Of a DNA stretch of 64,000 bases, positions 3,345 through 59,565 are shown piece by piece. The notes beneath the pieces are model-generated. The model worked only from the letters and a program-made list of their open reading frames with translations, had not been told where the DNA came from and did no database searches. The position numbers and the translations under genes were made by a program. Source of the DNA: Platerodrilus igneus (taxonomy: Eukaryota; Arthropoda; Insecta; Coleoptera; Lycidae); assembly GCA_036346225.1 (NCBI GenBank), contig JARFIW010000494.1, positions 2,046,001 through 2,110,000 of the forward strand. Reading direction: 5' to 3'. Numbering within the stretch: the stretch's first letter is position 1; each line of letters opens with the position of its first letter.

Positions 3345-3782
3345 ATAAATTTGATTTTTTAGAACAATATCCCAAATAATTTTAAACACTATCATCATAC
3401 CTATATTTAAATCAGGTGCCAAACATAACATATACAATTATAGACCTACCAGTTTGATAAGTATATTTGCAAAAGTCTTCGAAAAATGTCTGCAAGAAGA
3501 CCACCAGAAGTTTTAAATAAATATTACATAATCAGTAAAAAACAAAATGGCTTTACAAAAAGTGTAGGTACGGAGGGCGCCTTGCTTGACTTAGTGAATA
3601 ACATTAAGCTGAACTAGGATAATAATAAAAAGGTTATAGGAGTCGTTTTGGATCTAGCACAGACCATCAACACATTGCCCCATGAGAAGCTCCTAAAAGT
3701 GCTTGAGCACTTTGAAATTTGAGGTACAGTGTCTGATGAATAGAATCCAAGTAAAAATTTGAAAGTTGCAGTTCTAAAACAG
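3345..3782 (+). mobile_element. Jockey-type LINE, reverse transcriptase fragment, left half
   Basis: The plus strand reads, across frameshifts, IIPIFKSGAKHNIYNYRPTS, FAKVFEKCL, NGFTKS, then VIGVVLDLAQTINTLPHEKLLKVLEHF. These are the fingers/palm motifs of jockey-like reverse transcriptases (usual forms YRPISL and DLAKAFD). Stops and substitutions make it inactive. It stops exactly at the LTR of Gypsy element A, and its continuation is found on the other side at 10384. Confidence 0.75.
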
Positions 3783-4315
3783 TGTAACGGGCTACTACTA
3801 CCGCGTTTCTTTAATTTAAAACAAGTAGTAACAAGAGTCTTTATTACTCACTGTTCACAAGTCTAATTAACAGTATATGCCTTATTTATAGATGTTTTCA
3901 GTCCACTTAACAATGAAGCACTATTACACTAATGAATTGATAAGCATTAATATCTTCTTTAACTAACTCCTTTACCATAGGTCCATTAATAACACTAACA
4001 CAACTAGTATTTATTGCACTTCTATCTATTTATGTATACTACAAGCTGCATGTACATTAGACACATCATATAACATTTATGTATACTCTTTGACTTCCAA
4101 AAGCTCAACTACTGTTACTTTACACGATATAATTTATATTCGATATTCTGGTATAGACTAACTCTGTACTTTATCATCGGTCTTATTTATACCATAAATT
4201 AAAAAAGATGACTCATCCTCCAACAATTGCCAAAAGCTTCTCGGTCCGTGTAGAATATGCAGTGCTTGCGGCGCATGTGTATGTTTGACGGGTTGCCTAA
4301 TAGTAGCTCGCAACA
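3783..4315 (-). repeat. 3' LTR of element A
   Basis: Plus strand TGTAACGGGC...CTCGCAACA, 533 bp. It matches 9878-10383 and the solo LTR at 48894-49415 along its whole length. It carries about 26 bp (around 4250-4275) that the 5' LTR lacks. Confidence 0.9.
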
Positions 4316-4586
4316 CTGCCCCCTCTTTAAAACCGTTACGTCTCGTAACTGTAAATACATTTTGACGCCAATTCGAAGACTGATGACGGTATCGGCAGCT
4401 ATCTCCTCGGGTACATCCACCGCGTCGTTGGAAATAACAGTCAACGCTCTTTTCTTGGTCTTGGTAGGCAACCGGTTGATAACAACAAACAAGGACCTGG
4501 ACGTTGGTTCCCTGGAAAACTACTTCTATCATATTTCGGACTATCCTCCAATCTAAACGATCCAGTCCACAGCCTAGCTTGGGCAC
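4158..4586 (-). pseudogene. Macrodomain C-terminus plus CCCH zinc finger (element A accessory gene, second frame)
   Basis: This frame continues the macrodomain after a frameshift near 4589-4595. It starts PKLGCGLDRLDW, the motif that in OARD1/TARG1 holds the catalytic aspartate, followed by the last helix and strand (MIEVVF...VQVLVCCY). It then has a non-homologous tail with C50-X7-C58-X5-C64-X3-H68 (4383-4439), a CCCH-type zinc finger, a fold often used to bind RNA. The frame runs on through the polypurine tract (encoding FKEGAV) and about 50 codons into the 3' LTR before stopping at 4158. The frame has no ATG of its own (the first codon here is GTG), which supports its being the second half of the gene that begins at 4930. 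Confidence 0.75.
4316..4330 (-). other. Polypurine tract of element A
   Basis: In minus orientation AAAGAGGGGGCAG lies immediately before the 3' LTR, where plus-strand DNA synthesis is primed. It is also inside the accessory reading frame. Confidence 0.8.
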
Positions 4587-4588
4587 CG

Positions 4589-4930
4589 CTAGTCTCCATT
4601 TTCCATCATCTGAGCCTTAAGATTCAGCAAAGCCTCCCATAGATGTCCATAACTAGGTCTCTGCCATGAAGAATTTTTGGTGACCAGATAGTAAACACAA
4701 CGATTTTTATCCTGAAGAACCAAAGCTTTTCCTACAGTTGGCTGCTGTTGTACTAATTTATCGACACATCCAAACTTTTTCTTGAAAACAACAGCTATTC
4801 CCCTTGACATTTCCAAATCTTGAGCTACGCAATGTGCAAGGGAATACTCTTCTGGTGCTCTAAACAGATCTTGCTGTTTTTCAACAACAACGCCAAATCT
4901 CGCCTTAGCAAAACCACCATACGCCGCCAT
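4589..4930 (-). CDS. OARD1/TARG1-like ADP-ribose macrodomain carried by Gypsy element A
   Basis: The 113-codon ORF starts at ATG 4930, 14 bp after the integrase stop. From residue 21 it reads like the OARD1/TARG1 family: DLFRAPEEYSLAHCVAQD, SRGIAVVFKKKFG (the ligand loop, GxGIA in most members), then YYLVTK with lysine 85 at the position of the family's catalytic lysine, then a helix. The rest of the domain, with the GCGLDR catalytic aspartate, follows in another frame at 4586 after what looks like a one-base shift. Known members remove ADP-ribose from glutamate and deacylate O-acetyl-ADP-ribose. The first 20 residues are unrelated to the family. Gene order (after integrase, before the 3' LTR) is that of env in other elements; no env-like sequence is seen. 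Activity is doubtful in this copy because of the frameshift. Confidence 0.8.
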   Translation of the reverse strand: MAAYGGFAKARFGVVVEKQQDLFRAPEEYSLAHCVAQDLEMSRGIAVVFKKKFGCVDKLVQQQPTVGKALVLQDKNRCVYYLVTKNSSWQRPSYGHLWEALLNLKAQMMENGD

Positions 4931-4944
4931 AAAACTCTCAAAAT

Positions 4945-6339
4945 CTACATTTGCTCATGATTAATAACTTGTCGAATACCATTCTCATTATTCGAGCCTT
5001 CTTGGTTGTTGACAGCGTAAGATGTTAAACGGTCAAAGTGTACCACTTTCGGTTTACCACGGGGAGATCTTCTGATCCGGTATACTACATCATTAATCTT
5101 TTTCATCACTTCGTACGGGCCTTCCGATTGTCTTTGTAATTTTGGCGACAACACGCGTTTCCTTTGTGGATTATACAACCACACTAAATCTCCAGGTTGA
5201 TAACCACCTTCTTGAGCTCTCATGTCATATTGTGATTTCATTCGATCGCTTGCTGCCTGGATATTCTTTCGGACGTTTTCGTGAATGCTATTACGAAGCT
5301 TACTAACGTAATCTTCACCTGCGATCTCTTCTCCAGGTTTAAATCCAAACTGAAGATCACATGGTAGCCGCAATTCACGTCCTAGCATTACGCAAGCAGG
5401 CGAGTATCCTGTGCTGTCATGTACCGAAGATCGGTACGCCAGTAGGAACAAATGTAAATATTGGTCCCAGTCTCGTTGATGTTCAGAGACAACTTTGGCT
5501 AGGTACTTTCCTAACGTCCTGTTCATTCTTTCAACCATTCCATCCGATTGTGGATGAAGTGGAGTGGTTCTAGTCTTCCTGATTCCAAGATGCTTGCAGA
5601 CGTTTTGAAACAACACTGATTCAAAGTTCCGACCTTGATCGGAGTGTAATTCCAACGGAACTCCAAAGCGACAAAACAACTCCATCACTAGTACATGTGC
5701 AACCGTCTCGGTTTCTTGGTTAGGTATAGCATATGCCTCCGGCCATTTGGTAAAATAATCCATTGCAACCAAGATGTATTTATTTCCTTTCTCTGATTCA
5801 GGAAACGGACCAGCTATATCAATGGCTACTCTCTCAAAAGGATTCCCCACGTTATAATGTCTCACTGGGGCTTTCCGTTTTGTGACCGGGCCATTTGCGG
5901 AGGCACACAACTCACATTTCCGGCACCACTCCTTCACATCCTCTTTGCAGTTCACCCAATACAATCTTTTTCTCACTCTTTCGAGAGTTCTTTTCACGCC
6001 AAAGTGTCCTCCGGAAATACCATCGTGCAAGTGCTGCAACACTTCCGGCACTCTGCTTCTCGGCACTATCACTTGGAGTCTCTCAGTGCTATCTTCACAT
6101 TCCAGGCGTCGTTTCAAGATTCTATTTTCAATCACCAAGGAGTCCCACTGTGCCCAGTGTGCCTTCAGGCTCCTACTTGAAATACTAATTTCTTCCCAAG
6201 CTGGTCGGTGTCCTTTACTTTTCCACTCAATCATACGTCCCAATTCGGCGTCATTCTCCTGGTCTTCTCGTATTCTTTCGAGTTGCCAAGTATAATCGGT
6301 TACTGTCATTCTATGGATGACACTTATTTTCTCTTCCAT
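4945..6339 (-). CDS. Element A integrase (3' part of pol)
   Basis: A 464-codon open frame, the 3' part of pol. It has the HHCC zinc-binding domain (HDGISGGHFG ... CRKCELC, about residues 108-146), then the catalytic core with D in DIAGPFPES, D in SDQGRNFE and E in DGMVERMNR, and a GPY/F-type module (SEGPYEVMKKINDVVYRI) near residue 410. These are features of Ty3/Gypsy integrase. The frame is shared with the RNase H and RT segments upstream, so the native protein was one polyprotein. The stop at 4945 is followed by the macrodomain ATG. Confidence 0.9.
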   Translation of the reverse strand: MEEKISVIHRMTVTDYTWQLERIREDQENDAELGRMIEWKSKGHRPAWEEISISSRSLKAHWAQWDSLVIENRILKRRLECEDSTERLQVIVPRSRVPEVLQHLHDGISGGHFGVKRTLERVRKRLYWVNCKEDVKEWCRKCELCASANGPVTKRKAPVRHYNVGNPFERVAIDIAGPFPESEKGNKYILVAMDYFTKWPEAYAIPNQETETVAHVLVMELFCRFGVPLELHSDQGRNFESVLFQNVCKHLGIRKTRTTPLHPQSDGMVERMNRTLGKYLAKVVSEHQRDWDQYLHLFLLAYRSSVHDSTGYSPACVMLGRELRLPCDLQFGFKPGEEIAGEDYVSKLRNSIHENVRKNIQAASDRMKSQYDMRAQEGGYQPGDLVWLYNPQRKRVLSPKLQRQSEGPYEVMKKINDVVYRIRRSPRGKPKVVHFDRLTSYAVNNQEGSNNENGIRQVINHEQM

Positions 6340-6663
6340 CTTGGAGCAATGATTGCAGTCTACCGGAAAAGGTCTACTAGATAGAGCGTCTGCATTCCGA
6401 TGGCTAGTTCCTACACGAGGTTCTGTGTTAAAGTTATATTCCTGCAGCCGCTCTATCCACCTTGCAACTTACCCTTCAGTATTTCGAAACTGCAGTAACC
6501 ATTTTAGTGCAGCATGGTCTGTTCTCAACAGGAATTTACGGCCGTATAAGTACTTATAAAAGTGCTCTACGGATTTGACGACGGCCAACAGCTCCCTTTT
6601 TGTTACACAATAGTTCCTCTCTGGCCGCGACAAGACCTTGCTGAAATACCCAATAACTTTTTC
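6340..6663 (-). pseudogene. Element A RNase H segment with two nonsense codons
   Basis: In the same frame as RT and integrase the translation gives KVIGYFSKVLS, YCVTKRELLAVV, YLYGRKFLLRTDHAALKWLL and HRNADALS, all RNase H motifs of Gypsy pol. A TAA at 6664 and a second TAA near 6471 interrupt it. Confidence 0.85.
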
Positions 6664-7632
6664 TTATCCGTCCTGCACTTGAGAAAAAACGCTTCCTATA
6701 GCTGTGTTACTGGCATCGGTATCCAACACAAATTTCCCCTCCAACCGTGGATAACTCAAAATTGGTGTTGTAACTAGTAGCCGTTTGAGTTGTTCAAATG
6801 CACTGTAGCAGTCGTCATTCCAATCATATTCTTGTCCATCTTCGGTTAATTTCGTTAACGGTTTGGCAATGTTCGCAAACGCAAGTATCAAACGTCGGTA
6901 ATATATGCACAATCCTAGAAAACTGCGCAGTTGGTGTATATTTGCCGGTGTAGGCCACTCTTGTACCGTTTTAATTTTGTCAGGGTCAGCTCTTATTCCG
7001 GTCTCTGAAACGACATGTCCTAGGTATTTCACCTCTTTTCCAAATAGGAGACATTTCTTGAGGCTCAATGTAAGGTTTGCCCCGCGTAATTTTTGGAATA
7101 TCTCTTCTAGGTTCTTGAGATGTTCTTCAAATGACCGGCCTAACACTATCACGTCGTCTAGGAACACCAGATATGTTTTCCAGGACAACCCACGCAGCAT
7201 CGACTCCATCAATCGTTCAAAAGTAGCAGGGCATTGCATAATCCAAATGGCATAACCTTGAATTGTAAACGCAGTCTTTTCTTTATGGCTTGGCTCCAAA
7301 CCTATCTGCCAGTATCCGCTTTTCAAGTCCAAGGTCAAAAACCATTTAGATCCGGATAGGGTATCCAACGCGTCATTAATTCTGGGCAAAGAATAGCTGT
7401 CTTTCTTTGTCACATTGTTTAATCGCCGGTAGTCTACACAAAACTTTGTCGACCCATCCTTTTTCTTGACAAGCACTACCGGGGATGCCCATGGACTATT
7501 CGAGGGTTCAATCACTCCTTGTTCTTCCATGTCGGTGATTATTTGCTCGGTTTCCTTACGTTTTGCCAAAGGAAGCCGCCTGGGGTGTTGTCTTATCGGT
7601 TGCGTATCTCCAGTATTGATCTTATGTTGCAC
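6664..7632 (-). pseudogene. Element A reverse transcriptase
   Basis: A 322-codon open stretch with VIEPSNSPWASPVVLVKKKDG, FCVDYRRLN, LDLKSGYWQI and the catalytic FLDDVIV box, then the thumb (YLGHVVSETGI) and the start of RNase H (LDTDASN). It is bounded by in-frame stops at about 7648 and 6664, so pol is not translated through. The active-site aspartates are kept. Confidence 0.9.
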
Positions 7633-7647
7633 AACATTCGTCCTTCC

Positions 7648-8343
7648 TTACTCACTATCATCCAGTGCAAACATACCTCGATACTGTCCGACCAGTTCTT
7701 TTACCTTGCTCAGTTGGTCGCCGTTTAGTCCTTGACACGAAGGTGTCAACATATCCAGTAATTTCTGTGAGCAACCATTGGCTGGTTTATCTTTCGTGTA
7801 GTCCACACAACGTTTAATATGGCATACTGGAATGGAACTTCCCACAATCATGTCTTTCTTCAGGGTCACCGTATGCGGATTAATGTTCAGCACCCTTACT
7901 GGTATCATATTTCGAAACTTTACCAGCGTTTTTCCAATCAGTAATCCTTCCTGACCCATTTCCGATTCAGTTGCTTCCATCATGCATACTTGTCCTTCCC
8001 GAAGCGTAGCATCCGGTCGTCCCATTACTATCATTTCCGCCTTCTTGGGTATTTTCATATCGCAAATCATTCGAACTTGCATAGTTTGGTTACTCGTACC
8101 TTGAAATGGAATCTCATCATCATCTATCCGAAGCACATTTTCTTTCATGTTTACATGAAACCCATATTCTCTCATGAGATCCATTCCCAAGATCACTTCT
8201 TCTGTAATTTCAGCTACCAACACTCGATGATTAATTAGTTTGTCCCCAATTGCCAACATAACGGCAGTCTCTCCGTAAGTACAAATTTTTTCACCACTTG
8301 CCGTTCGAACACACCGATGCAGGTAGCACTTTTCCACGACCAA
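7648..8343 (-). pseudogene. Element A protease-RT linker
   Basis: Continues the protease that begins at the end of the preceding frame (DTGATRT) after a frameshift near 8340. It contains LGMDLMREYGFHVN, a typical second half of a Gypsy aspartic protease, and a linker to RT. It shares the RT frame and ends in a TAA at about 7648. Confidence 0.75.
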
Positions 8344-9190
8344 CCAAATCTGGTCTCACAATAGTTCTTGTCGCTCCTGTATCCACGAGTAATCGGACAA
8401 TCCTACCATTAATTCTACCATCGCTATAAATGCTGTCCAGACTTCCCATCGACGATGCAGCACGGATGATAATCTCCGGGGCACTACGCTGTGCTGTCGA
8501 CGTTCGCCCCCTTACATTGACCTGCTTTAGCTCAACCGGTTGTTTCTTTGGTTGAGTACAGCGTCTCTGCATATGACCAACTTCACCGCAGCTCCAGCAT
8601 CGCAGACGCCATCTCCGCGGTCGTTGTCTTTCCAGCCTTTCCGCGTTTCGCTTTTCAAACACACGATTGATTATTTCATCTATGCTGTTTTGAGCTTGAC
8701 TAGGTTCCTCTAAGGCAGACCGAACTTTGTGACTCATCCTGTGTGATGTCTGCTTAGCTGCTTCGAATTCAAGCTCATGAGCCAGTGCGTCATCTAACAT
8801 TTTTGGCCGTGCTAGTCTTAGCGCTTGCTGTATTTCGCCATCTTTAACGCCATCCAAAAATGTTTGAACAGCCAGTTGTTCAAGGCAGCTACCTAGTGCC
8901 GTTGGGTATGCTAATCTAACTAATCTGGCGATGTCAGCTTCGAATTCTTGCAGGCTTTCACTTGTCTTTTGCGAGCGGCTCCTAACTTGTGCGTGGTGAA
9001 CTTGTTGAAGGTGAGCATCTCTATATCTCATCTCTAGCTTCGATGTTAAGAGGCCGTAATCATTCCGCTGGTGATCGGGAATCGTTTGTAAGATGTTAAG
9101 GGCTTCTCCTCGTAGGGCCACTATTAGAGAGATAGCCTTCTCTTTGTTGCACCAACCGTTGGCTATTGCAGCAGCTTCAAATTGTTTCAA
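8291..9190 (-). pseudogene. Element A gag (capsid, CCHC knuckle) and protease start
   Basis: A 299-codon open stretch. It starts in the capsid region (KQFEAAAIANGW ... LRGEALNIL, SLQEFEADIARLV), followed by a CCHC knuckle CWSCGEVGHMQRRC (CX2CX4HX4C) and then the aspartic protease motif LLVDTGATRTIVRP. The start is not the native one: similarity to capsid begins upstream in another frame, so the gene is shifted near 9200-9230. Confidence 0.85.
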
Positions 9191-9230
9191 ATATGCGGGC
9201 CAAGTGTTTTGCCATCGAATGTGGGTGGTT

Positions 9231-9833
9231 TCACAATTTTGACGGTATTGACTCGCTTTCTACCATGCTTCTTATTTCGGGAATGTTCTGATTTACAACT
9301 TGGTTTGCTAATTCAAGTGGCCGCGTTGTTAGTGAAATCACTTGTTCTTGCAGCCTCATCATATCTTCTTCCATTTTTACCAATTTACTGTCCAACTTTT
9401 GCTCAACTGTTTTTATCTGTTCGGTGACATCTTCTTTCAGTACAATGAAGCTTTCCATTAATCTTTGTTATAACGTGGCTATCTTTTCATTCAACTCTTC
9501 CGTTTTCACTGCATTTTTATTAAACCTTTTTTTAATTTTCTTAGAATTTTCACTTAACTTTTCTTTTATTTTTTCAGCATTTGTACTAAACCTCTTTTTC
9601 ATTTTCTTAGCATTTTCACTTGACTTTTCTTCTATTTTCTCAGCATTTTCACTTAACTTTTCTTTAAAGGTTGATTCCAGTTCAACTGACCTCACTACGT
9701 TTTCATTTTGTGTCACTTCCAGTTTAGCCGACCTCTCCTCCATACCGGATTTAAAATCCTTGAGGAATTTCATTAAAGTTTCTGCCTCCATTTTCTTTTG
9801 GCTTCTTGTAACTGGCATATACAAACTACTCAA
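9231..9833 (-). pseudogene. Element A gag N-terminal coiled coil
   Basis: ATG 9833 begins MSSLYMPVTRSQKKMEAE. It then has a Lys/Glu-rich repeat (NAEKIEEK / NAKKMKKRF / NSKKIKKRF units) and, after a TAA near 9468, a second helical part with DVTEQIKTVEQKLDSK and MRLQEQVISL. The whole is a long coiled coil, common at the N-terminus of such gags. The repeated DNA unit (CATTTTCACTTAACTTTTC on the plus strand) suggests internal duplication. Confidence 0.7.
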
Positions 9834-9867
9834 ATGTCTTTAGACTTAATTAATCACCCAACACAGC

Positions 9868-9876
9868 CTGACACCA
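9868..9876 (-). other. Primer binding site, tRNA-Leu like
   Basis: Minus orientation TGGTGTCAG, one base after the 5' LTR, complementary to the CTGACACCA 3' end found in many tRNA-Leu. Only about nine bases match clearly. Confidence 0.6.
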
Positions 9877-9877
9877 G

Positions 9878-10383
9878 TGTAACGGGCTACTACTACCGCG
9901 TTTCTCTAATTTAAAACAAATAATAACAAGAGTCTTTATTACTCACTGTTCACAAGTCCAATTAACAGTATATGCCTTATTTGTAGATGTTTTCAGTCCA
10001 ATTAACAATGAAGCACTATCACACTAATGAATTTACAAGCACTAATATCTTCTTAAACTAACTTCTTAAGGATTGGTCCATTAAAAACATTAACACAACT
10101 ATAATTTATTACACTTTTGTCTATTTATGTATTCTACGAGCTGCATGTACATTAGACACATAATATAACATTTATGTATACTCTTGGACTTCTAAAAGCT
10201 TAACTACTTTTACTTTACACGATATAATTCCTATTCGACATTCTGGTATAGACTAACTCTGTACTTAATCATCGGTCTTATTTATACCATGAATTAAAAA
10301 GGATGACTCATCCTCCAGCAATAGCCAGAAGATTCTCGGCGCTTGTGTATGTTTGACGGGTTGCCTAATAGTAGCTCGCAACA
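9878..10383 (-). repeat. 5' LTR of element A
   Basis: 506-bp copy of the LTR at 3783-4315, with TGTAACGGGC and CTCGCAACA ends on the plus strand. It lacks about 26 bp present in the other LTR and carries many point differences. Confidence 0.9.
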
Positions 10384-10670
10384 ATAGTTAAAAAAGGAGT
10401 TTCGCAAGGAACAGTTCTTAAGTCATCATTATTTATTATTTACATCAATACATTACTACAAATCGCTATAAACTCAAATATAATTGATAGCTGGAAAGTA
10501 GTAAAAGAGGAAGCTGAAACTAACATGGTCAATGTGAAAAATGTACTGAATAAACTAAAACTAATACTTAATATAACTAAAACTCATTATAGCACATTTT
10601 CTCTAAATAATAAAAGTAAATCTAATTTAATACAATGAAAATAAGAAACTAAATTTTATCTGTATAGACG
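10384..10670 (+). mobile_element. Jockey-type LINE, right half
   Basis: Directly after the element A LTR the plus strand reads VKKGVSQGTVLKSSLFIIYI, the GVPQGTVLGPLLF box that follows the DLAKAFD region in jockey-type reverse transcriptases, and then VKNVLNKLKLILNITKTHYS. It continues the fragment ending at 3782. The YADD box between them is deleted or degraded. Confidence 0.75.
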
Positions 10671-30050: not shown

Positions 30051-33000
30051 AAATCCCTGTAAATTCAAACAACAAATTAGGAATAATAAATCATATAACA
30101 TTTCAACAAGGAGTAGAGACCCCAACCGCACTAGTACAAATAAAAGATAATTATGCCACAACGACGATTTTAAATTCAAATGACTACCCCTTAGAACTAT
30201 CATTAACCAACCCAATTAACGCTGAAGAATTAAATTTTAACGAGATGGAAATAGACGAAAATTTAAACGAAAATTATAATCCCGCAGAAAACAACGAAAT
30301 GTTAAGAGAGAATTTAAGTAACATCCGCTTTACAAACATCAATCAAGTGGAACAAAGAGGCAATAAAAAATTTGTTTTGAATACCACGACATATTCCATT
30401 GCGAAGGAATACCCCTAACGTTTACAAATACAGTCAAACATAACATCGAACTAACGGATAACAAACCAATATTCGCAAAAGCATACAGATTACCCCAGGC
30501 AAGTCAGGAAGAAGCTGACAGACAAGCAGCCGACTTATTAGATCAAGATATCATACAACACTCGAACTCCCCATGAAGCAGCCCTGTATTAATAGTACCC
30601 AAGAAATTGGACGCATCAGGAAAAAGAAAATATAGAATGGTAATAGACTATAGAAAACTAAATGAAAAAACGGTAGAAGACATAACTGAAACTTTAGATA
30701 AATTAGGCAAGTGCCAATATTTTTCGACATTAGATCTAGCCTCAGGATACCATCAAGTAGAAATGGAAGAAAAGGATACACCAAAAACAGCCTTTAGCAT
30801 ACCTAGAGGACATTACGAGTATAAAAGGATGCCATTTGGATTAAAGAACGCACGCGCAACTTTTCAACGACTGATGGATAATATACTACAAGGGATACAC
30901 AACGAAAAATGTCTTGTGTACCTAGACGATATCATAGTTTATTCAACATCATTAGTGGAACATATAGAAAGATTAAGAGAAGTGTTCGAAAGAGTATACG
31001 AAAAGCACAATTTAAAGTACAATTAGAAAAGAGCGAATTTTTACAGGAAGAAGTAGCATTTTTAGGACATATAATAACACCCCAAGAAGTTATGCCGAAC
31101 TCCGATAAAACAAATGCAGTACTAAATTACCCCATGCCAAAGACGAACGAAAGAAATAAAAAGATTTTTAGGACTTAGTGGTTACTACCGCAAATTTATT
31201 AAAGGTTATGCTCAAATAACCAAACCCCCTGACAAATTGTTTAAAGAAAGCAAATAAAATTGAACATACCCCAGAATTTAATAAAGCCGTAGATAAAATT
31301 AAAAGCATATTAACAAATCACCCCGTATTAGAATACCCCGACTTTTCGAAACCATTCATTTTAACGACAGACGCACCAAATGTAGCATTAGGCGCAGTGT
31401 TAAGCCAAGGAACAGTAGGCAACGATAAACCCATCAGCTACGCATCCAGAACCCTAAACGAAACCGAACAGAAGTATAGCACGATAGAGAAAGAATTGTT
31501 AGCCATAATTTGGGCAACAAAATATTTTAGACCATATCTATACGGACGAAAATTTCATATATACACCGATCATAGACCATTAGTATGGCTATGCAAACTT
31601 AAGGAACCTAATTCAAAATTACAACGATGGAGAATCAGACTAGAAGAATATGACTACGAGATAATATACAAGAAAGGAATTTATTATAATAACGCAGACG
31701 CTTTAAGTAGAATACAGCTTAACGCACTGGAAACAGAATCAGTTATAGGAAACGTAGACGAAACGGAAATTAGAGAAGATCCAGACGAGATGGACACCAT
31801 ACTCTCAACACAAAATCAAGAGCCGAAAACCGCGATTAAAATTTTAAATAAAGCCATCGATATGAAACCCAATCAGTTTATAATCAACGAAGTTTTAACC
31901 AACCCCAACCCTGTAAAATATACAAAAGTAGATAACAAAAAGATATACCAAATTCAGATAACCAAAGACTACAATGAAGAACAAATAATTAAAATTCTAA
32001 AAGAATACACCTCCGAGAAAAAACGATTTTATTTTTACTTTAACACCGAAAACTATATAAACGATTTTCAGAATTATATGTTAAATTATTTAATAACTCT
32101 GGCCCTGAACTTATAAGATGCACAAGAAAATTAATAACCTTAGACGACCCTGACGAAATAAATGATGTAATAAGAAACCAACACAAAGGAAAAACCAACC
32201 ATCGTAGAATTAATGAAACCCTAAAACAAATTATGAGACGATATTATTTCAAGGACATGAAAGAACTAACTACAGACTTTATCAATCAATGTGAACTATA
32301 CGACAAAGCAAAATATGATAGGAAACCCCAAATATACCTTTAATGTTAACTAAGACACCTGACAAACCCTTTCAGAAATTACATGCCGATACTCTAGTAG
32401 TAGAAGCACAAAGTTATTTGACAATTGTAGACGCATTTACAAAAATAGGCCAAGCAATACCAATCACCTCTAAAAATAGTATTGACGTAATCCAAGGATT
32501 TTTACAGTACTTTACATTTTATGGAACGTCCGAAACAATAACGTTAGATAACGGCAGCGAATTTAAAAATGAAACTATACAAAACACTTTGGAACTACAC
32601 AAAAAAAAATTCATTTTATAACCGAAAACCACCTTGAATCAAATGGACTAATCGAAAGACTACATTCAACCCTGCAAGAACAAATCAGATTACTAAGAAT
32701 AACCTACAAGAAAGAACACATAACTAATTTAATGTCATACGCACTAATCGCCTACAATAACACAATTCATTCATCAATCAATTTTACGCATTAGAATTAA
32801 CTTTAGGACATTCAGATGCACGCAACCCTTACGATATACATTATAACAACGAAGTTTATCAGCAATACGTCAAAGATCATAAAGAAAAACTAAAAATAAC
32901 TTACGACAAAGTAAAGGATAAATTAGATAACGACAAGAAACGCATTACCACAACCCGTAATAAAAATAGCGACGCAAATAAATTCTCAATAGGACAAACC

Positions 33001-48893: not shown

Positions 48894-49415
48894 TGTAACG
48901 CGCTACTACTACCGCGTTTCTTTAATTTAAAACAAGTAATAATAATGGTCTTTATTACTCACTGTTCACAAGTCTAATTAACAGTATATGCCTTATTTAT
49001 AGATGTTTTCAGTCCACTTAACAATGAAGCACTATTACACTAATGAATTTACAAGCACTAATATCTTCTTAAACTAACTTCTTTACCCTAGGTCCAATAA
49101 CCACACTAACACAACTATTTGTTTATACACTTCTATTTATTTATGTATACTGCAAGCTGCATGCACATTAGACACAGCATATCATTTATGTATATATTCT
49201 AAAAACTCAACTACGTTTACTTTACAACGATATAATTTATATTAGACATTCAAGAATAGACTAACTCTTACATTCATAAGCGGCCTTATATATACCCTGC
49301 ATTAAGATATGACTCATTATCTAGAACTTTGTAGAAGGATTCTCGAATGCTGAAGAATACGCTGTGCCCCGGGCGTTTGTATGTTTGACGGGTTGCCTAA
49401 TAGTGGATCGCAACA
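48894..49415 (-). repeat. Solo LTR of Gypsy element A
   Basis: 522 bp, TGTAACGCGC...GATCGCAACA on the plus strand, matching both LTRs of the element at 3783-10383. Flanked by a perfect 4-bp duplication ATAT (48890-48893, 49416-49419). It results from LTR-LTR recombination after insertion into LINE E. Confidence 0.9.
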
Positions 49416-51258: not shown

Positions 51259-53002
51259 TCATTTAAAATTCATATTGTCTAGGGGTACATTTGTTTGTTT
51301 GGGTTTCTTAAATCTAAAACTGTTTTCTTTATTATTCTTAAATCTAATACATATTTTGTACATTACATAAATAATCAATAAAATAGTCAATAAAATCAAT
51401 ATAATTGTCCATACACTAATGTTATCATAGTGCACTTTGGGCGTCTTGATCTCGTTCAGTTTTTCTTTGTATTCTTCCATGAGTTTCATGGCGTAGTTTA
51501 AGTTGTCTAATTCCAGGTGTTCTAATTGCATTGGTTTTTGAAGGGTTTCTTCATCTTCTTCTTGGTTAATCTTGATTTGCAGATCGGGTAGATTTGCTAA
51601 TTTCTTGCTTTGTACTGGATCTTGGTAAACTCTAATTATTTCATTTTTTAATTTTAAATAACAATTTTCCTTAAGGGTGATTAATTTACTTCCGGTTAAT
51701 GCTAAATTACTTTCTTCTTGATTACAATACATTGTTGCGATTACTTCGGTGGGAAAAATGGCTATCCATTTATTTTCCGTTACTTTCTGAATTTTCATGT
51801 TGTTGATTAATACAGGTTTGTCTTCACAATTTTCATAATGATTGGTAAATTTTAGTAGTTGTACTTCGCAAGGGCTGTCTTCTTGAATTGTTGTGGTTGT
51901 TAATGATTGGCATAAGTATTGACTGGGTGTGACTTCATTACATTTGTCGTTTGTATAACCATATCTTTGTTCATTTAAGGATAGGAATTTGGTTTTTGGA
52001 ATAATAACTTGGTATGTGCTAGTCATTTTCATTGAAAAAGCAAATAAGTGGTAATAATTGTAACTGTTAATCTCTACTATCGGTATTTCTATTAAAAATG
52101 TTATATCGTTATTTTTTACATAGCCTTTAACTGTGGCTATTTTTTCAAATATTAAAATGTTTGATTCTAATACATCGAAAGGTAATTTACTATTAGTTAT
52201 AAAAGATTTTATTCTCAATAATTCTTTTAATAGATCTACTGGTTCTATTATACTTGAATGTAGGGTATTTAATTTTGCAAAGGTTACTGCGTTTTCTAAT
52301 GTTGCTAGGATTTGTTGAATTAAAGTTAGGGTTGATATTATTTGGTTATATATCGTATTGAATCTGATTAAATCTCGCATGCCTAACATGGTAGTTCGCA
52401 TGTTATTTTCTAAGGTTTCTATTCGATTAGATATACTATCTTGATTTCTAACTAATTTTCTAAGGATTTCATTAAATTTGATGATCGTTGATTGTGTTAA
52501 CGATATTTGATTACTAATTATAGCTTTAATGTCGTTTTGATTTTCTATCAATTGTTGTATCGCGTTGTCATAGCGTTCTGCGTCTTGGTTATCTAAATTT
52601 CCGGTAATTGCTTTAATTAGGTTTCCTAATCCGTTGATTAGTCCTCTTTTTCTTCTCGTCATTTGCTCTGTAGGTATTAGTCGATTAAATTTGTCTTCGA
52701 TATTTTTCAAAATACTTTCTGTTATACTGTCGTAGTTCATCATTTCTATTGCGTATTCTTTTCCGAATTTTGTTGTGTCCATTGACTGTTTTAGTCGAAA
52801 ATAATTATTTTTTATTATTTGAAATTCTTGTTTTAGCTCGGTTAAATCGAATTTTTGTGCAAAGGTCCAATAATCTATAGTGTTTTGCATACTGCCTAAT
52901 TTAATTGGTAGTATACCGGGGTTATTCTTTATGTTTTCAATTATAATTTCTGTGTCCGTTCTACCTGGGTGGAGGTTGACGGTAAGGGTGACGATTGTCC
53001 AT
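51259..53002 (-). CDS. Errantivirus envelope glycoprotein (main exon)
   Basis: An open frame whose first ATG is at 52890 (543 codons) but which is open upstream to beyond 53002. It has a furin-like site RRKRG about 79-83 residues from that ATG, a following Gly-rich fusion-peptide-like segment (GLINGLGNLI), a long heptad region, and a C-terminal membrane anchor (ISVWTIILILLTILLIIY) with a basic cytoplasmic tail. This is the F-like envelope architecture of insect errantiviruses, a type I fusion protein. It overlaps the end of pol in another frame. The start appears to come from a spliced leader exon: acceptor TACTTTCAG at 53011-53003, donor at 59294. In that reading the N-terminus would be hydrophobic, as for a signal peptide. 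Confidence 0.85.
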
Positions 53003-56000
53003 CTGAAAGTACAGGGTGTCTTAAATTTTTGAGGTGAACATATTTTGTTATCTTGCCGTCGTCTATCGCGGCTACGTTTTTGTCGGATATTCGTTTGATT
53101 TTCAAGGGTCCTAAATTTCTCGGTGCCGTTTTGTGTCTTTTGCTTTGGTAATTTTTCTCGAATACGGTTTGTCCTATGGAAAATTTGTTTATGTCTGAGT
53201 TTTTATTACGGGTCGCGGTAATTCGCTCTTTATCGTTATCTAATTTGTCCTTTACTTTGTCGTAGGTTATTTTTAGTTTCTCCTTGTGGTCTTTAGCGTA
53301 TTGCTGGTAGATTTCTTTGTTATAATGTATATCGTAGGGGTTGCGTGAATCTGAATGTCCTAAGGTTACTTCTAAGGGTGTAAAATTTGTAGTTGAATGA
53401 ATCGTGTTATTATACGCGATTAATGCGTATGACATTAAATTGGTTATGTGTTCTTTCTTGTAATTTATTCTTAATAGTCTGATCTGTTCTAATAGGGTTG
53501 AATGTAGTCTCTCAATTAGTCCGTTTGATTCAGGGTGGTTTTCCGTTATTAAGTGAATTTTTATTTTGTGTAATTCTAAAGTGTTTTGAATCGTTTCGTT
53601 TTTAAATTCGCTTCCGTTATCTAATGTTATTATTTCGGGTGTTCCGTAAAATGTAAAATAGTGTAGAAATCCTTGAGTTACGTCTATACTATTTTTTGAA
53701 GTGATTGGTATTGCTTGTCCTATTTTCGTAAATGCGTCCACGATTGTTAGGTAACTTTGTGCTTCTACTACTAGAGTATCTGCATGTAATTTTTGGAAAG
53801 GTTTGTCTGGTGTTTTAGTTAACATTAAGGGTATCTTTGGGGGTTTTCTGTCGTATTTGGCTTTATCACATAATTCGCACTGATTGATAAAGTCGGTCGT
53901 TAGTTCTTTCATGTCCTTGAAATAGTAACGTCTCATAATTTGTTTTAGGGTCTCGTTTATTCCTCGATGGTTGGTCTTTCCTTCGTGTTGGTTTCTTATT
54001 ACGTCATTTATTTCGTCAGGGTCGTCTAATGTTATTAATTTTCTCGTGCATCTTATAAGTTCGGGGCCAGAATTGTTAAATAGTTTTACATATATTTCTG
54101 AAAATCGTTTGTATAAGTTTTCCGTGTTAAAATAAAAGTAAAATCGTTTTTTTTCGGGGGTGTATTCCTTTAATATTTTTATTATTTGTGATTCATTGTC
54201 GTCTTTGGTTATTTGAATTTTGTAAATTTTCTTATTGTCTACTTTCGTGTATTTTACAGGGTTGGGGTTGTTTAAAACTTCTGTGATTATAAATTGATTG
54301 GGCTTCATGTCTATAGCTTCGTTTAAAATTTTTATTGCGGTTTCCGGTTCGTCATTTTGTGTCGAATGTATGGTTTCCATTTCTTCTGGGTCTTCTCTGA
54401 CTTCGGTTTCGTCTACGTTTCCTGCTAATGATTCTGTCTCAAGTGGGTTAAGTTGGATTCTACTTAAAGCGTCTGCATTATTGTTGTAAATTCCCTTTTT
54501 GTATATGATCTCATAGTCATATTCTTCTAGTCTGATTCTCCATCTTTGTAATTTCGAGTTAGGTTCTTTGAGTTTGCATAGCCAAACTAATGATCTATGA
54601 TCGGTATATATATAGAATTTCCGTCCGTATAGGTACGGTCTGAAATATTTTGTTGCCCAAATTATGGCTAACAATTCTTTCTCTATCGTACTGTATCGTT
54701 GCTCTGTTTCGTTAAGGGTTCTTGATGCGTAACTGATAGGTTTGTCGTTACCTACTGTTCCTTGACTTAATACTGCGCCTAAGGCTACATTTGATACGTC
54801 CGTTGTTAAAATGAATGGTTTCGAAAAGTCTGGGTATTCTAATATGGGGTGATTTGTTAAAATGCTTTTAATTTTATCTACTGCTTTTATGAATTCTGGG
54901 GTATGTACAATTTTGTTTCCCTTTTTTAAACAATTGGTTAGGGGCTTTGTTATTTGAGCATAACCTTTTATGAATTTTCGGTAATATCCGCTAAGGCCTA
55001 AAAATCCTTTAATCTCTTTATTCGTTTTGGGTATAGGGTAATTTAATACAGCGTTTGTTTTGTCGGGGTTTGGCATTACTCCTTGGGGTGTTATTACGTG
55101 TCCTAAAAAGGTTACTTCTTTCTGTAGAAATTCGCTTTTGTCTAGTTGTACTTTAAATTTTGTGGTTCTTAATCTTTCGAACACTTCTCTTAATCTTTCT
55201 ATGTGCTCCATTAATGATGTTGAATACACTATTATATCGTCTAGGTACACAAGGCATTTTTCGTTGTGTATCCCTCGTAGTATGTTATCCATTACTCGTT
55301 GAAAAGTTGCGGGTGCGTTCTTCAGTCCAAATGGCATCCGTTTATACTCGTAGTGTCCTCTAGGTGTGCTAAAGGCTGTTTTCTGTGTATCTCCTTCCAT
55401 TTCTACTTGATGGTATCCTGATGCTAAGTCTAGCGTCGAAAAATATTGGCATTTGCCTAATTTGTCTAATATTTCTGTGATATTCGGTAACGGGTATTTA
55501 TCGTCTACCGTTTTTTCATTTAGTTTGCGGTAATCTATTACCATTCGGTATTTCCGTTTTCCTGATGCGTCTAGTTTCTTAGGTACTATTAGTACGGGGC
55601 TGCTCCATGGTGAATTGGAGTGTTGTATAATATCTTGATCTAATAGATCGGTTACTTGTCTGTCAGCTTCTTCCTGACTTGCCTGGGGTAATCTGTATGC
55701 TTTGGTGAATAGGGGTTTGTTATCCGTTAGTTCAATGTTGTGTTTAACTGTATTTGTAAACGTTAGGGGTATTCCTTCGCAATGAAATATATCGCGGTAT
55801 TCATAACATAATTTTTGTATTGCGTTTTGTTCTTCGTGATTTATGTCGCGGTTAAATCGGATATTATTTAAATTTTGTTTCAACATTTCGTCTTTTTCTA
55901 CGGGGTTGTAATTTTCGTTTGGGGATTCATCTATTTCCATTTCGTTAAAGTTTAATTCTTCTACGTTTATCGAGTTTGTTAAAGATATTTCTACGGGGTA

Positions 56001-56145
56001 ATCATTTGCGTTTAATATGGTCGTTGTGGCGTAATTGTCTTTGATTTTTACTAATGAGGTTGGGGTTTCTACTCCTTGTTGAAAAGTCCTGTGGTTTATT
56101 ATTCCTAAGTTTTTATTTGAATTTACGGGGATTCTTATTTTTTTT
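52941..56145 (-). CDS. Errantivirus pol: reverse transcriptase, RNase H, integrase
   Basis: Open from about 56145 (after the protease) to the stop at 52941; from the internal ATG 55940 it has 999 codons. Counting from that ATG: RT with [10 protein letters not shown] near 131, [10 protein letters not shown] near 170 and catalytic YLDD at 232-235; RNase H with [24 protein letters not shown] and NNNADALSR; integrase with HHCC (NHRG...CELC), D in LHADTL, D in LDNGSEF and E in GLIERLH. No stop or frameshift seen. It is in the -1 frame relative to protease, after a run of ten A. Confidence 0.9.
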
Positions 56146-56613
56146 TTGTTCGGGGTTCTAATGTATATTTTTCGTCGATTTGGGTATTTTGAAATTTAAT
56201 GGGGATTCGTCCATACTTGGTTCTTAATAATCGGTTTTTGATATCTATGTTGGCTCCTAATTTTCTTAGAAGGTCCATTTCTAATAGTCCGTCATATTTG
56301 TCATTAAATTCAAATATGCAGAATTTGTGTTCATTTTTACGTTAAAGGTTTTTGGTAAAGGTATGTTTGCTACGAATTGGTGTATGGTTGTTTGATGGGC
56401 GGTTTTAATTTTAAAGGGTTCTCTCTCTACATAGTTTAAATAATGTTTCTTTACTGTTCGCGGGCTTATTAATGTTTTAGAAGATCCGGTATCGATTAGT
56501 AATTTAAATTCAGCGTGGGGTATTTCGATATAGGGTAATACAAGGTGATTCATATTATTTAGATTTATTACGTTAAGTCGTTTATAAAATAATCCATTTG
56601 AAAATTTGAACAT
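56136..56613 (-). pseudogene. Errantivirus protease (one-base deletion)
   Basis: The frame overlaps the end of gag by 46 bases in the -1 frame and carries LLIDTGSSKTLISPR, the aspartic protease active site. It stops early at 56281 because of a one-base loss near 56330; the following codons (the second half of the protease) continue in the neighbouring frame up to a TAA just after the A-run near 56145. The old copy at 29640-30050 has this region uninterrupted. Confidence 0.8.
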
Positions 56614-57791
56614 GTGTTCTCTTCGTCGTCTTCCTCGTAATTTTCTTGTGGTTCTTCGCGTTCATAATGGTTTGATTGATTTTGTTCGTTATTCGTACAC
56701 GGTTGATTATTATTATTCTGGTCATCTTCATACTCTTCTACTTCTTGGTGAAATAGCTCTTCTGAAGTGAAAGTGCGTTTTTGATTAAGGTTTGGTCTTA
56801 TGTGGGTTATTTTTGTGTTAGGTCTGGCGTTACCAGATGAGGTATCCATTGGTGTAGGTTTGTAATAGTTATTGGAATTATTATTGTGTATCGTCGGTGA
56901 GTTTCTGTTAGGATTCGCGTTAAATGTTGGTCTTTGTTGATTTATATTTTGGTTAAATCTCGGTTGAAATGCGGGTCTTGAAAAGTTCGAGTTAAATGTT
57001 GGTTGATATGCGGGTTTTGTAAAGTTCGGGTAAAATGTTGGTTTTGAGAATTGTTTGTATTGGTTATTAAAGTTTGAATTATTAAAGTGTGGATTATTTG
57101 TTCGCGTTTGATTTGCTTGTGCATTGAATGAGTTAAATTTTTGTTGTGGATTTATTTGTCTTGCGGGTTGTATAGTTTTCATTGGCGTATAGCTTTTATT
57201 CGCGTTGGGGTTATATAGTCGGTTTCTGTAGTACATTACATTTTCTTCTTCAATTATCATATTCATTGCTTGTTCTAAGTTTTGGGGATGTTGAAATCTA
57301 ATTTTATCTGAAAGTCTTTCGGGTAGTGCATTTAGATAGGTATCTAATGCCATCTCGTCATACATTTTAGTTTTTATTAGTCTCACGTTTGGGTCGGTTT
57401 CTTCGATTTTGAGTTTTGTCAAGATTAGGCTTCTTACATCTTGGCATCTCATTCCAAATTGATAGGGTGACTGATTGTGTTCCATTCGTAGACCGGTTAA
57501 GTCCCTTACTAAACATTTTAAGTTCGGTTGATCGCCGAAATATGCAATTAATATTCGTTTAAACTGTTCCCATTCGTCTACGTCTTCGCGACTGGCTATT
57601 AACGTTAGTTCCCTTCCGGTTAGTTTACTGGTTATAAGGCGGATCAGCAAAGTGTTTCTGTCGTTATCGCCTGGCTTATAAAAGGTCTTTAAGAATATTT
57701 CGCTGGCTGAAATGTAATTACTGAGTAAGCAAGTGTCATTTCCATTAAATTGGGGTATCATTTCGAGGTACAGCTTCATGTCATTAGTCAT
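56568..57791 (-). CDS. Errantivirus gag
   Basis: 407 codons from ATG 57791 to a TAA at 56568. The N-terminal half is a helical capsid-like region (ELTLIASREDVDEWEQFKRI, LKCLVRDLTGLRMEHNQ, KMYDEMALDTYLNALPERLS), followed by an Asn/Gln/Pro-rich tail with repeated NF.P/F.P.F units and an acidic C-terminus. No CCHC knuckle, as usual for errantiviruses; RNA binding probably relies on the Asn/Arg-rich tail. It forms the particle core. Confidence 0.9.
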   Translation of the reverse strand: MTNDMKLYLEMIPQFNGNDTCLLSNYISASEIFLKTFYKPGDNDRNTLLIRLITSKLTGRELTLIASREDVDEWEQFKRILIAYFGDQPNLKCLVRDLTGLRMEHNQSPYQFGMRCQDVRSLILTKLKIEETDPNVRLIKTKMYDEMALDTYLNALPERLSDKIRFQHPQNLEQAMNMIIEEENVMYYRNRLYNPNANKSYTPMKTIQPARQINPQQKFNSFNAQANQTRTNNPHFNNSNFNNQYKQFSKPTFYPNFTKPAYQPTFNSNFSRPAFQPRFNQNINQQRPTFNANPNRNSPTIHNNNSNNYYKPTPMDTSSGNARPNTKITHIRPNLNQKRTFTSEELFHQEVEEYEDDQNNNNQPCTNNEQNQSNHYEREEPQENYEEDDEENTCSNFQMDYFINDLT

Positions 57792-59565
57792 CTTGGCTGG
57801 GGTAATATTTGGGTAATTTTAAAAAAAGTAAAAAAAAATTTATTTTTTTTTTGAAAAATTTTGGTTTTATTTTGTGGTTTTTCGGTGTTATTTAATGAGT
57901 TTTACGCTTGGTATTAGTTTGGTTGAGTTTACTTTTGATTTGCAGATTTTTAATTTTAATTTCCGAAGTTTCAATGGGCTGAGTTATTTTTTGTGGTAAT
58001 TTATCGGGTGTAAATGTTTTGCGTTAATTGCGACAGTTAAAACTTCTCTAATTTTTTAATTACGTCGATTTTATTTAGGTGCGTAATAATTAATTTGTTG
58101 GTTTATGCGATTGTAAGGTGTCTGTAATGCTTACAATGTTATCTGCTGTTACAGGATGTTGTTAGTCACTTAGTTGCATTTGCGTCTCTATTATGAGTTA
58201 TTTTTAATTTTTACGTGGGTGTAATTTATTACTCGCAGTGATTTTATATAATACAATTTGTGCGTCTTTAATTTATTGCAGTAAAATTTTCACGTTATAA
58301 TTTGCGTTTTAGTACCGTACTTATTTATTCTTTCCGAGTAGTTTTAGATTGATACTTAAATAAAGTTTTCAATCGTAATTTTATGCTGTTTATAATTTCA
58401 CAATGATGAGAGGTTTCGCGATGTATTTAAATAGCTTTTGATGTGATTTATTATTAGATTTTTTGCGTATTTATTCAAGGTTAGTTTCATTCACTTTTGT
58501 AAGGATGAGGTATTACGTTCAATTTGAATTTGCGCTTAGTTAATTCTCGTATTAAGATGTGGTTTTTTAATAATAGAATGTGATTTGTCTATTTACGGAT
58601 GGTATTTGAGTTTGAATCGTGGTGTTGCTTTCGCGTTTTTATTCTTGGTGTATTTTAAATTATTTTTGTGAGTCAGTTAATTCTTTTATTGGGATTATAA
58701 ATTTTTATTTCTTGTGTTAGTTGGGATTGTAGAATTAGAAATTCTAAAATTTGTTGCGCCAGTTAAGATTGAATCAGAAATTCTAAAAATTTCTTGCGTT
58801 ATTTAAGTTTTGATTCAAAAATTCTAGAAATTTTTGTGTCAGTTAAGGTTGTCGAGTTAGAGGTTTTAAAAATTTTTTTTCGCGCCAGTTAAGATTTAAT
58901 TCCGCAATCTTAAGAGGTTTGATTTTGTTTAAGAATTTTTCTTACGTTAGTTAAAACGTGATCTAGTCTCTTGTGCTTTGCGACTTTTTTAATAATTGTC
59001 TCTAGTTTTTGTTTCAGAATAATTTTTCTCAGATCTTAGTCTCAGAATTTTTTGTTGTCTCAAGTTTTCATAAATTTTTCATATATAAAAGTAAAATAAT
59101 AATAAAATTTCAATAAAGGCTTGAAGATAATCTCTAGCAATTGCTAAGTCGATTATTTTCAAAAAATGGCATAAAATATTTGTAACAATAGTCAACATAT
59201 ACATAAATAAATCATAAATCATAAAACTAGCAAATATCAATTGTCTTTGTTAATAATAAAATAAATTTCAATTGGTTTAGGAAAATGAACTCACACTAGT
59301 TGCTTGGTTGCTTTCATTGATTTTCCTTTGTTTCTGTTTTTCTTTTGGCTTCTTGGATTTGATCTATGCTTGTATCGCCTCCAATTTTTCTTTTGTTGAA
59401 TTCGAACTATGCTTGTTTCTCCTTCAACTGCTGGACTTGAACGATGCGTGTTTCTTATCCAACTTTTGTTTTTGTTCTGCCAAAATCGGAACTGAAATTC
59501 CCGGACCACCAGTTCCTCGAAGTTGGATTCGCTAGTGCCCTTTTGACATCCGTTACGACTGCGCC
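57792..59565 (-). promoter_or_regulatory. Errantivirus 5' leader with splice donor and primer site
   Basis: 1.77 kb between the LTR and gag. The primer site TGGCGCAGTCG (59566-59556) fits the tRNA-Ser 3' end. A donor, ACTAGT|GTGAGT with the intron starting at 59294, is kept in the old copies as TTAGT|GTAAGT. An ATG at 59317-59315 lies 23 bases before the donor, in the frame that would enter env. Confidence 0.7.

What the first reader, a model, noticed from the sequence alone, without database searches (positions are those of the whole stretch)
4158..4930. Gypsy retrotransposon carrying an OARD1/TARG1-like ADP-ribose macrodomain in the env position
Between the integrase stop (4945) and the polypurine tract, element A encodes a protein that matches the OARD1/TARG1 macrodomain over most of its length (DLFRAPEEYSLAHC, RGIAVVFKKKFG, YYLVTK, then GCGLDR in a shifted frame). 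Both residues known to be catalytic in TARG1, a lysine and an aspartate, have counterparts. This looks like capture of a host ADP-ribosyl hydrolase by a mobile element. By analogy with macrodomains of RNA viruses it may act against ADP-ribosylation-based host defence, but that function is inference. I know of no standard Gypsy lineage defined by this gene.
Basis: partly seen in the sequence, partly recalled or inferred. Interest (0 to 1): 0.88.

Follow-up and report, generated by a model that had tools for sequence, protein, structure and literature searches.

The report
Jumping gene carrying ADP-ribose eraser domain
An old, broken Gypsy-type retrotransposon carries, where some of its relatives carry an envelope gene, a gene resembling an animal enzyme that removes ADP-ribose tags, followed by an RNA-binding-type zinc finger, which hints that such elements may gain from erasing tags that cells place on them.

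Summary
On the minus strand one Ty3/Gypsy-type element runs from LTR to LTR (3783-10383). The 629-nt interval between its integrase stop and 3' LTR (4316-4944) is spanned by two overlapping open frames matching human OARD1/TARG1: 94 residues at E=1.8e-21, then 39 residues in the second frame at E=7.6e-7. The catalytic lysine and aspartate positions are kept. The copy is dead: LTRs 8% diverged, four in-frame stops and a frame break in gag-pol, a frame break in the macrodomain gene. Compact placement, no flanking repeat or poly(A), and biased retention of conserved residues favour a true accessory gene over a stray pseudogene, but no second internal copy could be examined: own-genome search did not complete 16 times. 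Best reading: captured host TARG1-type ADP-ribosyl hydrolase fused to an RNA-binding finger, acting on element RNA, particles or silencing factors; activity and anti-defence role are inference. Macro-domain ORFs are already reported in fish endogenous retroviruses, so this is a new variant of a known kind; my searches found no Gypsy precedent.

The parts
3783..4315 (-). 3' LTR of element A (533 nt; TG..CA termini)
   Evidence: Alignment with 5' LTR and solo LTR; 91.9% identity to the 5' LTR over 506 aligned columns, K2P 0.086
4316..4328 (-). polypurine tract adjacent to the 3' LTR (reads AAAGAGGGGGCAG in element sense)
   Evidence: Sequence
4383..4439 (-). CCCH zinc finger, C-x7-C-x5-C-x3-H, C-terminal part of the accessory gene
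   Evidence: CPSF4 chains, best E=5.6e-6; Pfam zf-CCCH 20.7 bits, cut-off 20.5; pattern arises in 19 of 20000 residue shuffles
4488..4604 (-). C-terminal part of the OARD1/TARG1-type macrodomain, including GCGLD with the catalytic aspartate (codon 4560-4562)
   Evidence: phmmer E=7.6e-7 to human OARD1, residues 5-43 of ORF 4158-4616
4589..4930 (-). N-terminal two thirds of the accessory gene: first ATG 4930-4928, macrodomain with YYLVTK catalytic lysine (codon 4676-4678); frame is lost within the overlap 4589-4616
   Evidence: phmmer E=1.8e-21 to human OARD1, residues 27-120 of ORF 4589-4954
4945..8355 (-). pol (RT, RNase H, integrase after an unmatched first part) in one frame with internal stops at 7650-7648, 6666-6664 and 6471-6469
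   Evidence: ORFs, stop positions, Pfam RVT_1, RT_RNaseH, Integrase_H2C2, rve, Integrase_p58_C; no Pfam match in 7648-8355 at E<=1
8291..9818 (-). gag with CCHC zinc knuckle, and the start of protease in the same frame; broken by a stop at 9470 and a frame change between 9233 and 9262; N-terminal part lysine/glutamate-rich with 33-nt repeats
9862..9876 (-). primer-binding-site-like sequence beginning TGG, one base inside the 5' LTR (tRNA not identified)
   Evidence: Sequence
9878..10383 (-). 5' LTR of element A (506 nt)
48894..49415 (-). solo LTR of the same family, flanked by a 4-bp duplication ATAT
   Evidence: 86-87% identity to both LTRs

Best explanation
Element A is a decayed Ty3/Gypsy-type LTR retrotransposon whose third gene, downstream of integrase, is a captured animal TARG1/OARD1-type macrodomain joined to a C-terminal CCCH zinc finger. 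In living relatives the protein most likely worked as a mono-ADP-ribosyl hydrolase: the lysine attacks the distal ribose and the aspartate completes release, as proposed for TARG1. The zinc finger would hold it on RNA, so that it strips ADP-ribose from the element's own RNA ends or from gag/RNA particles, or from silencing factors at sites of element transcription, countering host ADP-ribosylation. Shown here: element anatomy, homology, kept catalytic residues, zinc finger, position. Inferred: that the gene is shared by the family, that it is one fused protein in intact copies, that it is active, and that it counters host defence.
For: OARD1 matches on two overlapping frames in the right order. 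Lysine of YYLVTK and aspartate of GCGLD kept; among 164 homologues held, the lysine is K in 157 of 157 with the motif and the aspartate is D in 146 of 148. Against 75 representatives of those homologues (less than 80% alike), the N-terminal piece keeps 25 of 34 near-invariant residues, 14 of 28 intermediate and 9 of 49 variable ones; the C-terminal piece 5 of 7, 9 of 19 and 4 of 20, as expected of a domain that diverged mostly under constraint. The start codon lies 15 nt after the integrase stop; open frames span the interval up to the PPT; the interval's two ends share no word of 7 or more bases, and it holds no A run above 5. CCCH finger. TARG1 removes ADP-ribose from acidic residues and from RNA and DNA terminal phosphates and binds RNA (PMC8053099, passages; PMC7050489, passages). 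Mono-ADP-ribosylation of KAP1 by SIRT6 is reported to silence L1 retrotransposons in mammals (PMC4695847, passages), so an element would have something to erase.
Against: One copy only, and it is broken. No relative of the element or of the macro-plus-CCCH combination was found: 0 of 164 retrieved homologues has a CCCH pattern; the single-sequence protein search gave no hit; IMG/VR scans gave none. The macrodomain ORF has lower GC3 (0.32; second piece 0.39) than the gag and pol segments (0.41-0.44), so it may be a late arrival. The first glycine of the phosphate-loop motif M-G-x-G-I-A is a serine, although M-S-x-G-I-A occurs in 12 of 161 homologues. Nine of 34 near-invariant positions are changed. 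Pfam's Macro model does not match.
Confidence: 0.5

Rival explanations
1. The macrodomain is a host OARD1 retrocopy or chimera picked up once, in this copy or a tiny subfamily (for example by template switching during reverse transcription), and never served the element.
For: Only one copy seen; GC3 differs from gag and pol; no second copy in the window; no match in protein or viral collections with the piece alone.
Against: Placement between integrase stop and PPT within open frames, without poly(A) or flanking repeat; biased retention of conserved residues although identity to the best listed OARD1 proteins is only about 50%; fused zinc finger not seen in the 164 homologues held.
Confidence: 0.22
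2. It is a true accessory gene but works as a reader or RNA-binding/targeting module (for example binding ADP-ribosylated chromatin or damaged DNA to steer integration, or packaging RNA) rather than as an eraser.
For: The phosphate-loop glycine is replaced by serine; ALC1-like macrodomains include readers as well as erasers (PMC7050489, passage); CCCH finger suggests RNA binding.
Against: Both TARG1 catalytic positions are kept; MS-x-GIA loops occur in 12 of 161 OARD1 homologues.
Confidence: 0.18
3. The zinc finger is a chance reading of non-coding sequence; the accessory gene is a macrodomain only, ending soon after the GCGLD helix.
For: The Pfam score is only 0.2 bits above cut-off; the frame runs on through the PPT into the LTR, where the solo LTR has frame-breaking indels, so about the last 51 codons of that frame are not gene.
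Against: Best structure match E=5.6e-6 to CPSF4; pattern in only 19 of 20000 shuffles; no stop in this frame between the macrodomain and the PPT.
Confidence: 0.15

Closest known systems
OARD1/TARG1 (C6orf130), ALC1-like macrodomain hydrolases of animals
   Same: Sequence over nearly the whole domain; catalytic lysine and aspartate positions
   Different: Encoded by a retrotransposon, followed in frame by a CCCH finger, frame broken in this copy; phosphate-loop G changed to S
Macro-domain ORFs of fish epsilon-like endogenous retroviruses (Basta et al. 2009, as cited in PMC4977317; passage seen)
   Same: A retroelement carrying an extra macro-domain gene
   Different: Vertebrate retrovirus-like elements; the macrodomain class is not stated in the passage; here Ty3/Gypsy-type with OARD1-type domain plus CCCH
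Orchid Ty3/Gypsy elements with a captured AlkB-type m6A RNA demethylase (PMC9289625; abstract and section 12 read)
   Same: Gypsy element that captured a host eraser enzyme acting on RNA
   Different: Different enzyme (demethylase), plants, many copies, activity shown in vitro
Bdelloid rotifer LTR elements with enzymatic ORF3 (DEDDy exonuclease, GDSL esterase) (PMC5408684; abstract)
   Same: Non-envelope enzyme in the third ORF
   Different: No macrodomain mentioned in the abstract; the rest was not read
Insect errantiviruses (gypsy/gypsy clade) with Baculo_F-type env, such as the neighbouring element at 51.3-57.8 kb
   Same: gag-pol-third ORF layout
   Different: Third ORF is a fusion glycoprotein (Pfam Baculo_F), not a macrodomain

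Membership tests
OARD1/TARG1-type macrodomain | Full-domain sequence similarity to OARD1 | tested here: met
   E=1.8e-21 and 7.6e-7 in two frames
OARD1/TARG1-type macrodomain | Catalytic lysine (Lys84) and aspartate (Asp125) of TARG1 | tested here: met
   YYLVTK and GCGLD aligned to human OARD1; residue roles from PMC5087735 passages. Mapping of motif to residue number is recalled.
OARD1/TARG1-type macrodomain | One intact open reading frame | tested here: not met
   Frame lost within 4589-4616; pieces were searched apart
OARD1/TARG1-type macrodomain | ADP-ribosyl hydrolase activity | not testable with these tools
   Needs a bench assay
Pfam PF01661 Macro | Score above Pfam cut-off | tested here: not met
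   No Macro hit at E<=1 for either piece; 7 of 7 whole OARD1-type proteins scanned do match, at 25-54 bits against a cut-off of 22
Ty3/Gypsy LTR retrotransposon | Paired LTRs with TG..CA ends, PBS, PPT, gag CCHC, RT-RH-IN order | tested here: met
   the protease region has only partial, weak aspartyl-protease matches
Ty3/Gypsy LTR retrotransposon | 4-6 bp target-site duplication | tested here: inconclusive
   Element A flanks ACAG/ATAG, one mismatch; solo LTR perfect ATAT
Ty3/Gypsy LTR retrotransposon | Clade placement by RT phylogeny | not tested
   No set of reference eukaryotic elements at hand; 41% identity to the neighbouring errantivirus-like RT
Errantivirus (insect endogenous retrovirus) | Third ORF encodes an F-type envelope | tested here: not met
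   No Baculo_F or other envelope match in the third-ORF pieces at E<=1
CCCH zinc-finger protein | C-x7-9-C-x4-6-C-x3-H and profile match | tested here: met
   Pfam zf-CCCH 20.7 bits vs 20.5 (marginal), CPSF4 E=5.6e-6
Element family defined by the macrodomain | Independent copies carry it at the same place | not testable with these tools
   The genome search unanswered 16 times; only a solo LTR elsewhere in the window

The most novel reading that the evidence does not exclude
A lineage of arthropod Gypsy elements has, in place of an envelope, a TARG1-type macrodomain tethered to RNA by a CCCH finger, an RNA-directed ADP-ribose eraser. Its upkeep would mean that the host ADP-ribosylates retrotransposon RNA, particles or silencing factors as a defence.
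Probability: 0.2. Interest if true: 0.85.

Novelty: new variant of a known kind. Interest (0 to 1): 0.62.

Why it matters
If the gene recurs in other copies, it would be another host 'eraser' enzyme kept by a Gypsy element (after the orchid m6A demethylase, PMC9289625), and it would make a concrete question testable: do animal cells use ADP-ribosylation, perhaps of RNA ends or of silencing factors, against LTR retrotransposons? SIRT6 is reported to silence L1 through mono-ADP-ribosylation of KAP1 in mammals (PMC4695847, passages), and the cellular relevance of nucleic-acid ADP-ribosylation is still called unclear (PMC8053099, abstract passage). An element that keeps a TARG1-type enzyme would point to a physiological setting.

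Tried and rejected
Host pseudogene inserted only here: not excluded, but disfavoured by the anatomy. C-terminal reading frame continuing into the LTR as real coding sequence: rejected, because the solo LTR copy has indels that are not multiples of three there. Bacterial DarG-type origin: weaker profile hits only (NCBIfam DarG 28.9 bits, cut-off 250; PHROG 335, E=2.8e-7 and 1.6e-8), while the animal OARD1 match of the larger piece is far stronger. Viral-collection scans for the macro piece, integrase, OARD1 pair, LTR and RT pair found nothing; one LTR pattern in prokaryote genomes found nothing. Paper searches for macrodomain/OARD1/TARG1 with Gypsy, retrotransposon or Metaviridae terms showed no report of such a Gypsy element (in only the first 20 of 37, 1191, 452 and 378 papers were shown). 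The only paper with both OARD1 and retrotransposon does not describe one in the passages found. I first took the flanks for a LINE RT by eye; Pfam gives the right flank RVT_1 at E=0.014, below its cut-off, and the left flank nothing, so this is only probable.

Full report
What was checked. The element lies on the minus strand. Its LTRs are 3783-4315 (3') and 9878-10383 (5'), 91.9% identical over 506 aligned columns with 41 substitutions and 30 gap columns (K2P 0.086), and a third, solo LTR of the family lies at 48894-49415 with a perfect 4-bp flanking repeat ATAT. The 4-bp flanks of element A are ACAG and ATAG. Its flanks look like two halves of a decayed LINE-type reverse transcriptase, but only the right one gives a Pfam trace (RVT_1, E=0.014, 15.6 bits against a cut-off of 29.6; left flank none), so insertion into a LINE is probable, not shown. 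A PBS-like TGG sequence follows the 5' LTR and a purine tract precedes the 3' LTR.

Genes. Gag (about 9818-8291) carries a CCHC knuckle and the start of an aspartyl protease; pol (8355-4945) carries, in order, RVT_1, RNase H, Integrase_H2C2, rve and p58_C domains, with no Pfam match in its first part, 7648-8355. Pol is one frame with three internal stops (7650, 6666, 6471); gag has a stop at 9470 and a frame change between 9233 and 9262. This copy is dead and old.

The finding. The integrase stops at 4947-4945. Fifteen bases on, at 4930, an ATG opens a frame that matches human OARD1/TARG1 over 94 residues (E=1.8e-21; 44% identity). The frame is lost in the overlap 4589-4616, and the match resumes in another frame with GCGLDRLDW (residues 5-43 of ORF 4158-4616, E=7.6e-7). 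Both catalytic positions of TARG1, the lysine of YYLITK and the aspartate of GCGLD, are kept; roles of Lys84 and Asp125 are from PMC5087735 (passages), while PMC7050489 writes Glu125 (passage); the mapping of motifs to numbers is recalled. The two frames were searched apart and never joined. Pfam's Macro model finds neither piece at E<=1, though it finds 7 of 7 whole OARD1-type proteins scanned, at 25-54 bits.

After the macrodomain the second frame encodes C-x7-C-x5-C-x3-H at 4383-4439, a CCCH finger: CPSF4 chains at E=5.6e-6, Pfam zf-CCCH 20.7 bits against a cut-off of 20.5, and 19 of 20000 residue shuffles give such a pattern. The frame then runs through the PPT into the LTR; since the solo LTR has indels that are not multiples of three there, 4158-4315 should not be counted as gene.

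Is it the element's own gene? For: the 629-nt interval between integrase stop and LTR is spanned by the two open frames from the ATG to the PPT; its ends share no word of 7 or more bases and it holds no A run above 5. The domain keeps 25 of 34 near-invariant, 14 of 28 intermediate and 9 of 49 variable residues in the N-terminal piece, and 5 of 7, 9 of 19 and 4 of 20 in the C-terminal piece, against 75 representatives of 164 homologues (the set is dominated by vertebrates). Lysine is K in 157 of 157 and aspartate D in 146 of 148 homologues with the motif; the altered phosphate loop MSRGIA has MS-x-GIA counterparts in 12 of 161. Against: one copy; lower GC3 in the macrodomain ORF (0.32; second piece 0.39) than in gag and pol (0.41-0.44); no relative found with the piece alone in the protein collection or in IMG/VR; no CCCH pattern in the 164 homologues. 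The profile searches returned 447 and 4954 proteins, of which 120 each were listed; the names I saw were of vertebrates, molluscs, an annelid, corals and lancelets, with no arthropod, so capture from the present host could not be tested or dated. The decisive test, other copies in the same genome, was asked 16 times and never answered (first, last).

How it most likely works. TARG1 hydrolyses ADP-ribose from acidic residues, from O-acyl-ADP-ribose and from the terminal phosphates of RNA and DNA, and binds RNA (PMC8053099 and PMC7050489, passages). The CCCH finger, a kind that usually binds RNA (recalled), makes RNA or the RNA-gag particle the likeliest substrate. Two lines make a defence target plausible: PMC7050489 speculates that RNA ADP-ribosylation may mark transposon-derived or viral RNA (passage), and PMC4695847 reports that mono-ADP-ribosylation of KAP1 by SIRT6 silences L1 in mammals (passages). 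That this protein acts there is inference.

Comparison. Extra macro-domain ORFs are reported for fish epsilon-like endogenous retroviruses (PMC4977317, passage; the cited paper is not held). Gypsy elements elsewhere have captured an m6A demethylase (PMC9289625, abstract and section 12) and bdelloid LTR elements carry enzymatic ORF3s (PMC5408684, abstract). Among Drosophila melanogaster Metaviridae, all seventeen lineages described as having a third ORF belong to the gypsy/gypsy clade, and that ORF is an envelope (PMC12992720, passages); the neighbour at 51.3-57.8 kb has that plan, with Baculo_F, which suggests, but does not prove, that the genome is an insect's. My searches showed no paper on an OARD1-type domain in a Gypsy element (open-access library, long listings seen only in their first 20 rows). 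Hence: new variant of a known kind, resting on one copy.

Noticed in passing
51259-57818 (minus strand): A second Gypsy-type element with open gag-like (416 aa), pol (1084 aa) and F-type envelope (647 aa, Pfam Baculo_F E=4.1e-29) ORFs: errantivirus-like.
   Followed up: partly
30424-31603 (plus strand): A third Gypsy-type RT/RNase H fragment (32-42% identity to element A's pieces).
   Followed up: no
9495-9665: 33-nt tandem repeats in the N-terminal part of gag encoding a lysine/glutamate-rich stretch.
   Followed up: no
3355-3782 and 10384-10635: Flanks that look like two halves of a decayed LINE-type reverse transcriptase; only the right one gives a weak RVT_1 match (E=0.014).
   Followed up: partly
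2261-2355 and 2537-2631: A 95-nt direct repeat, 85% identical, 276 nt apart.
   Followed up: no
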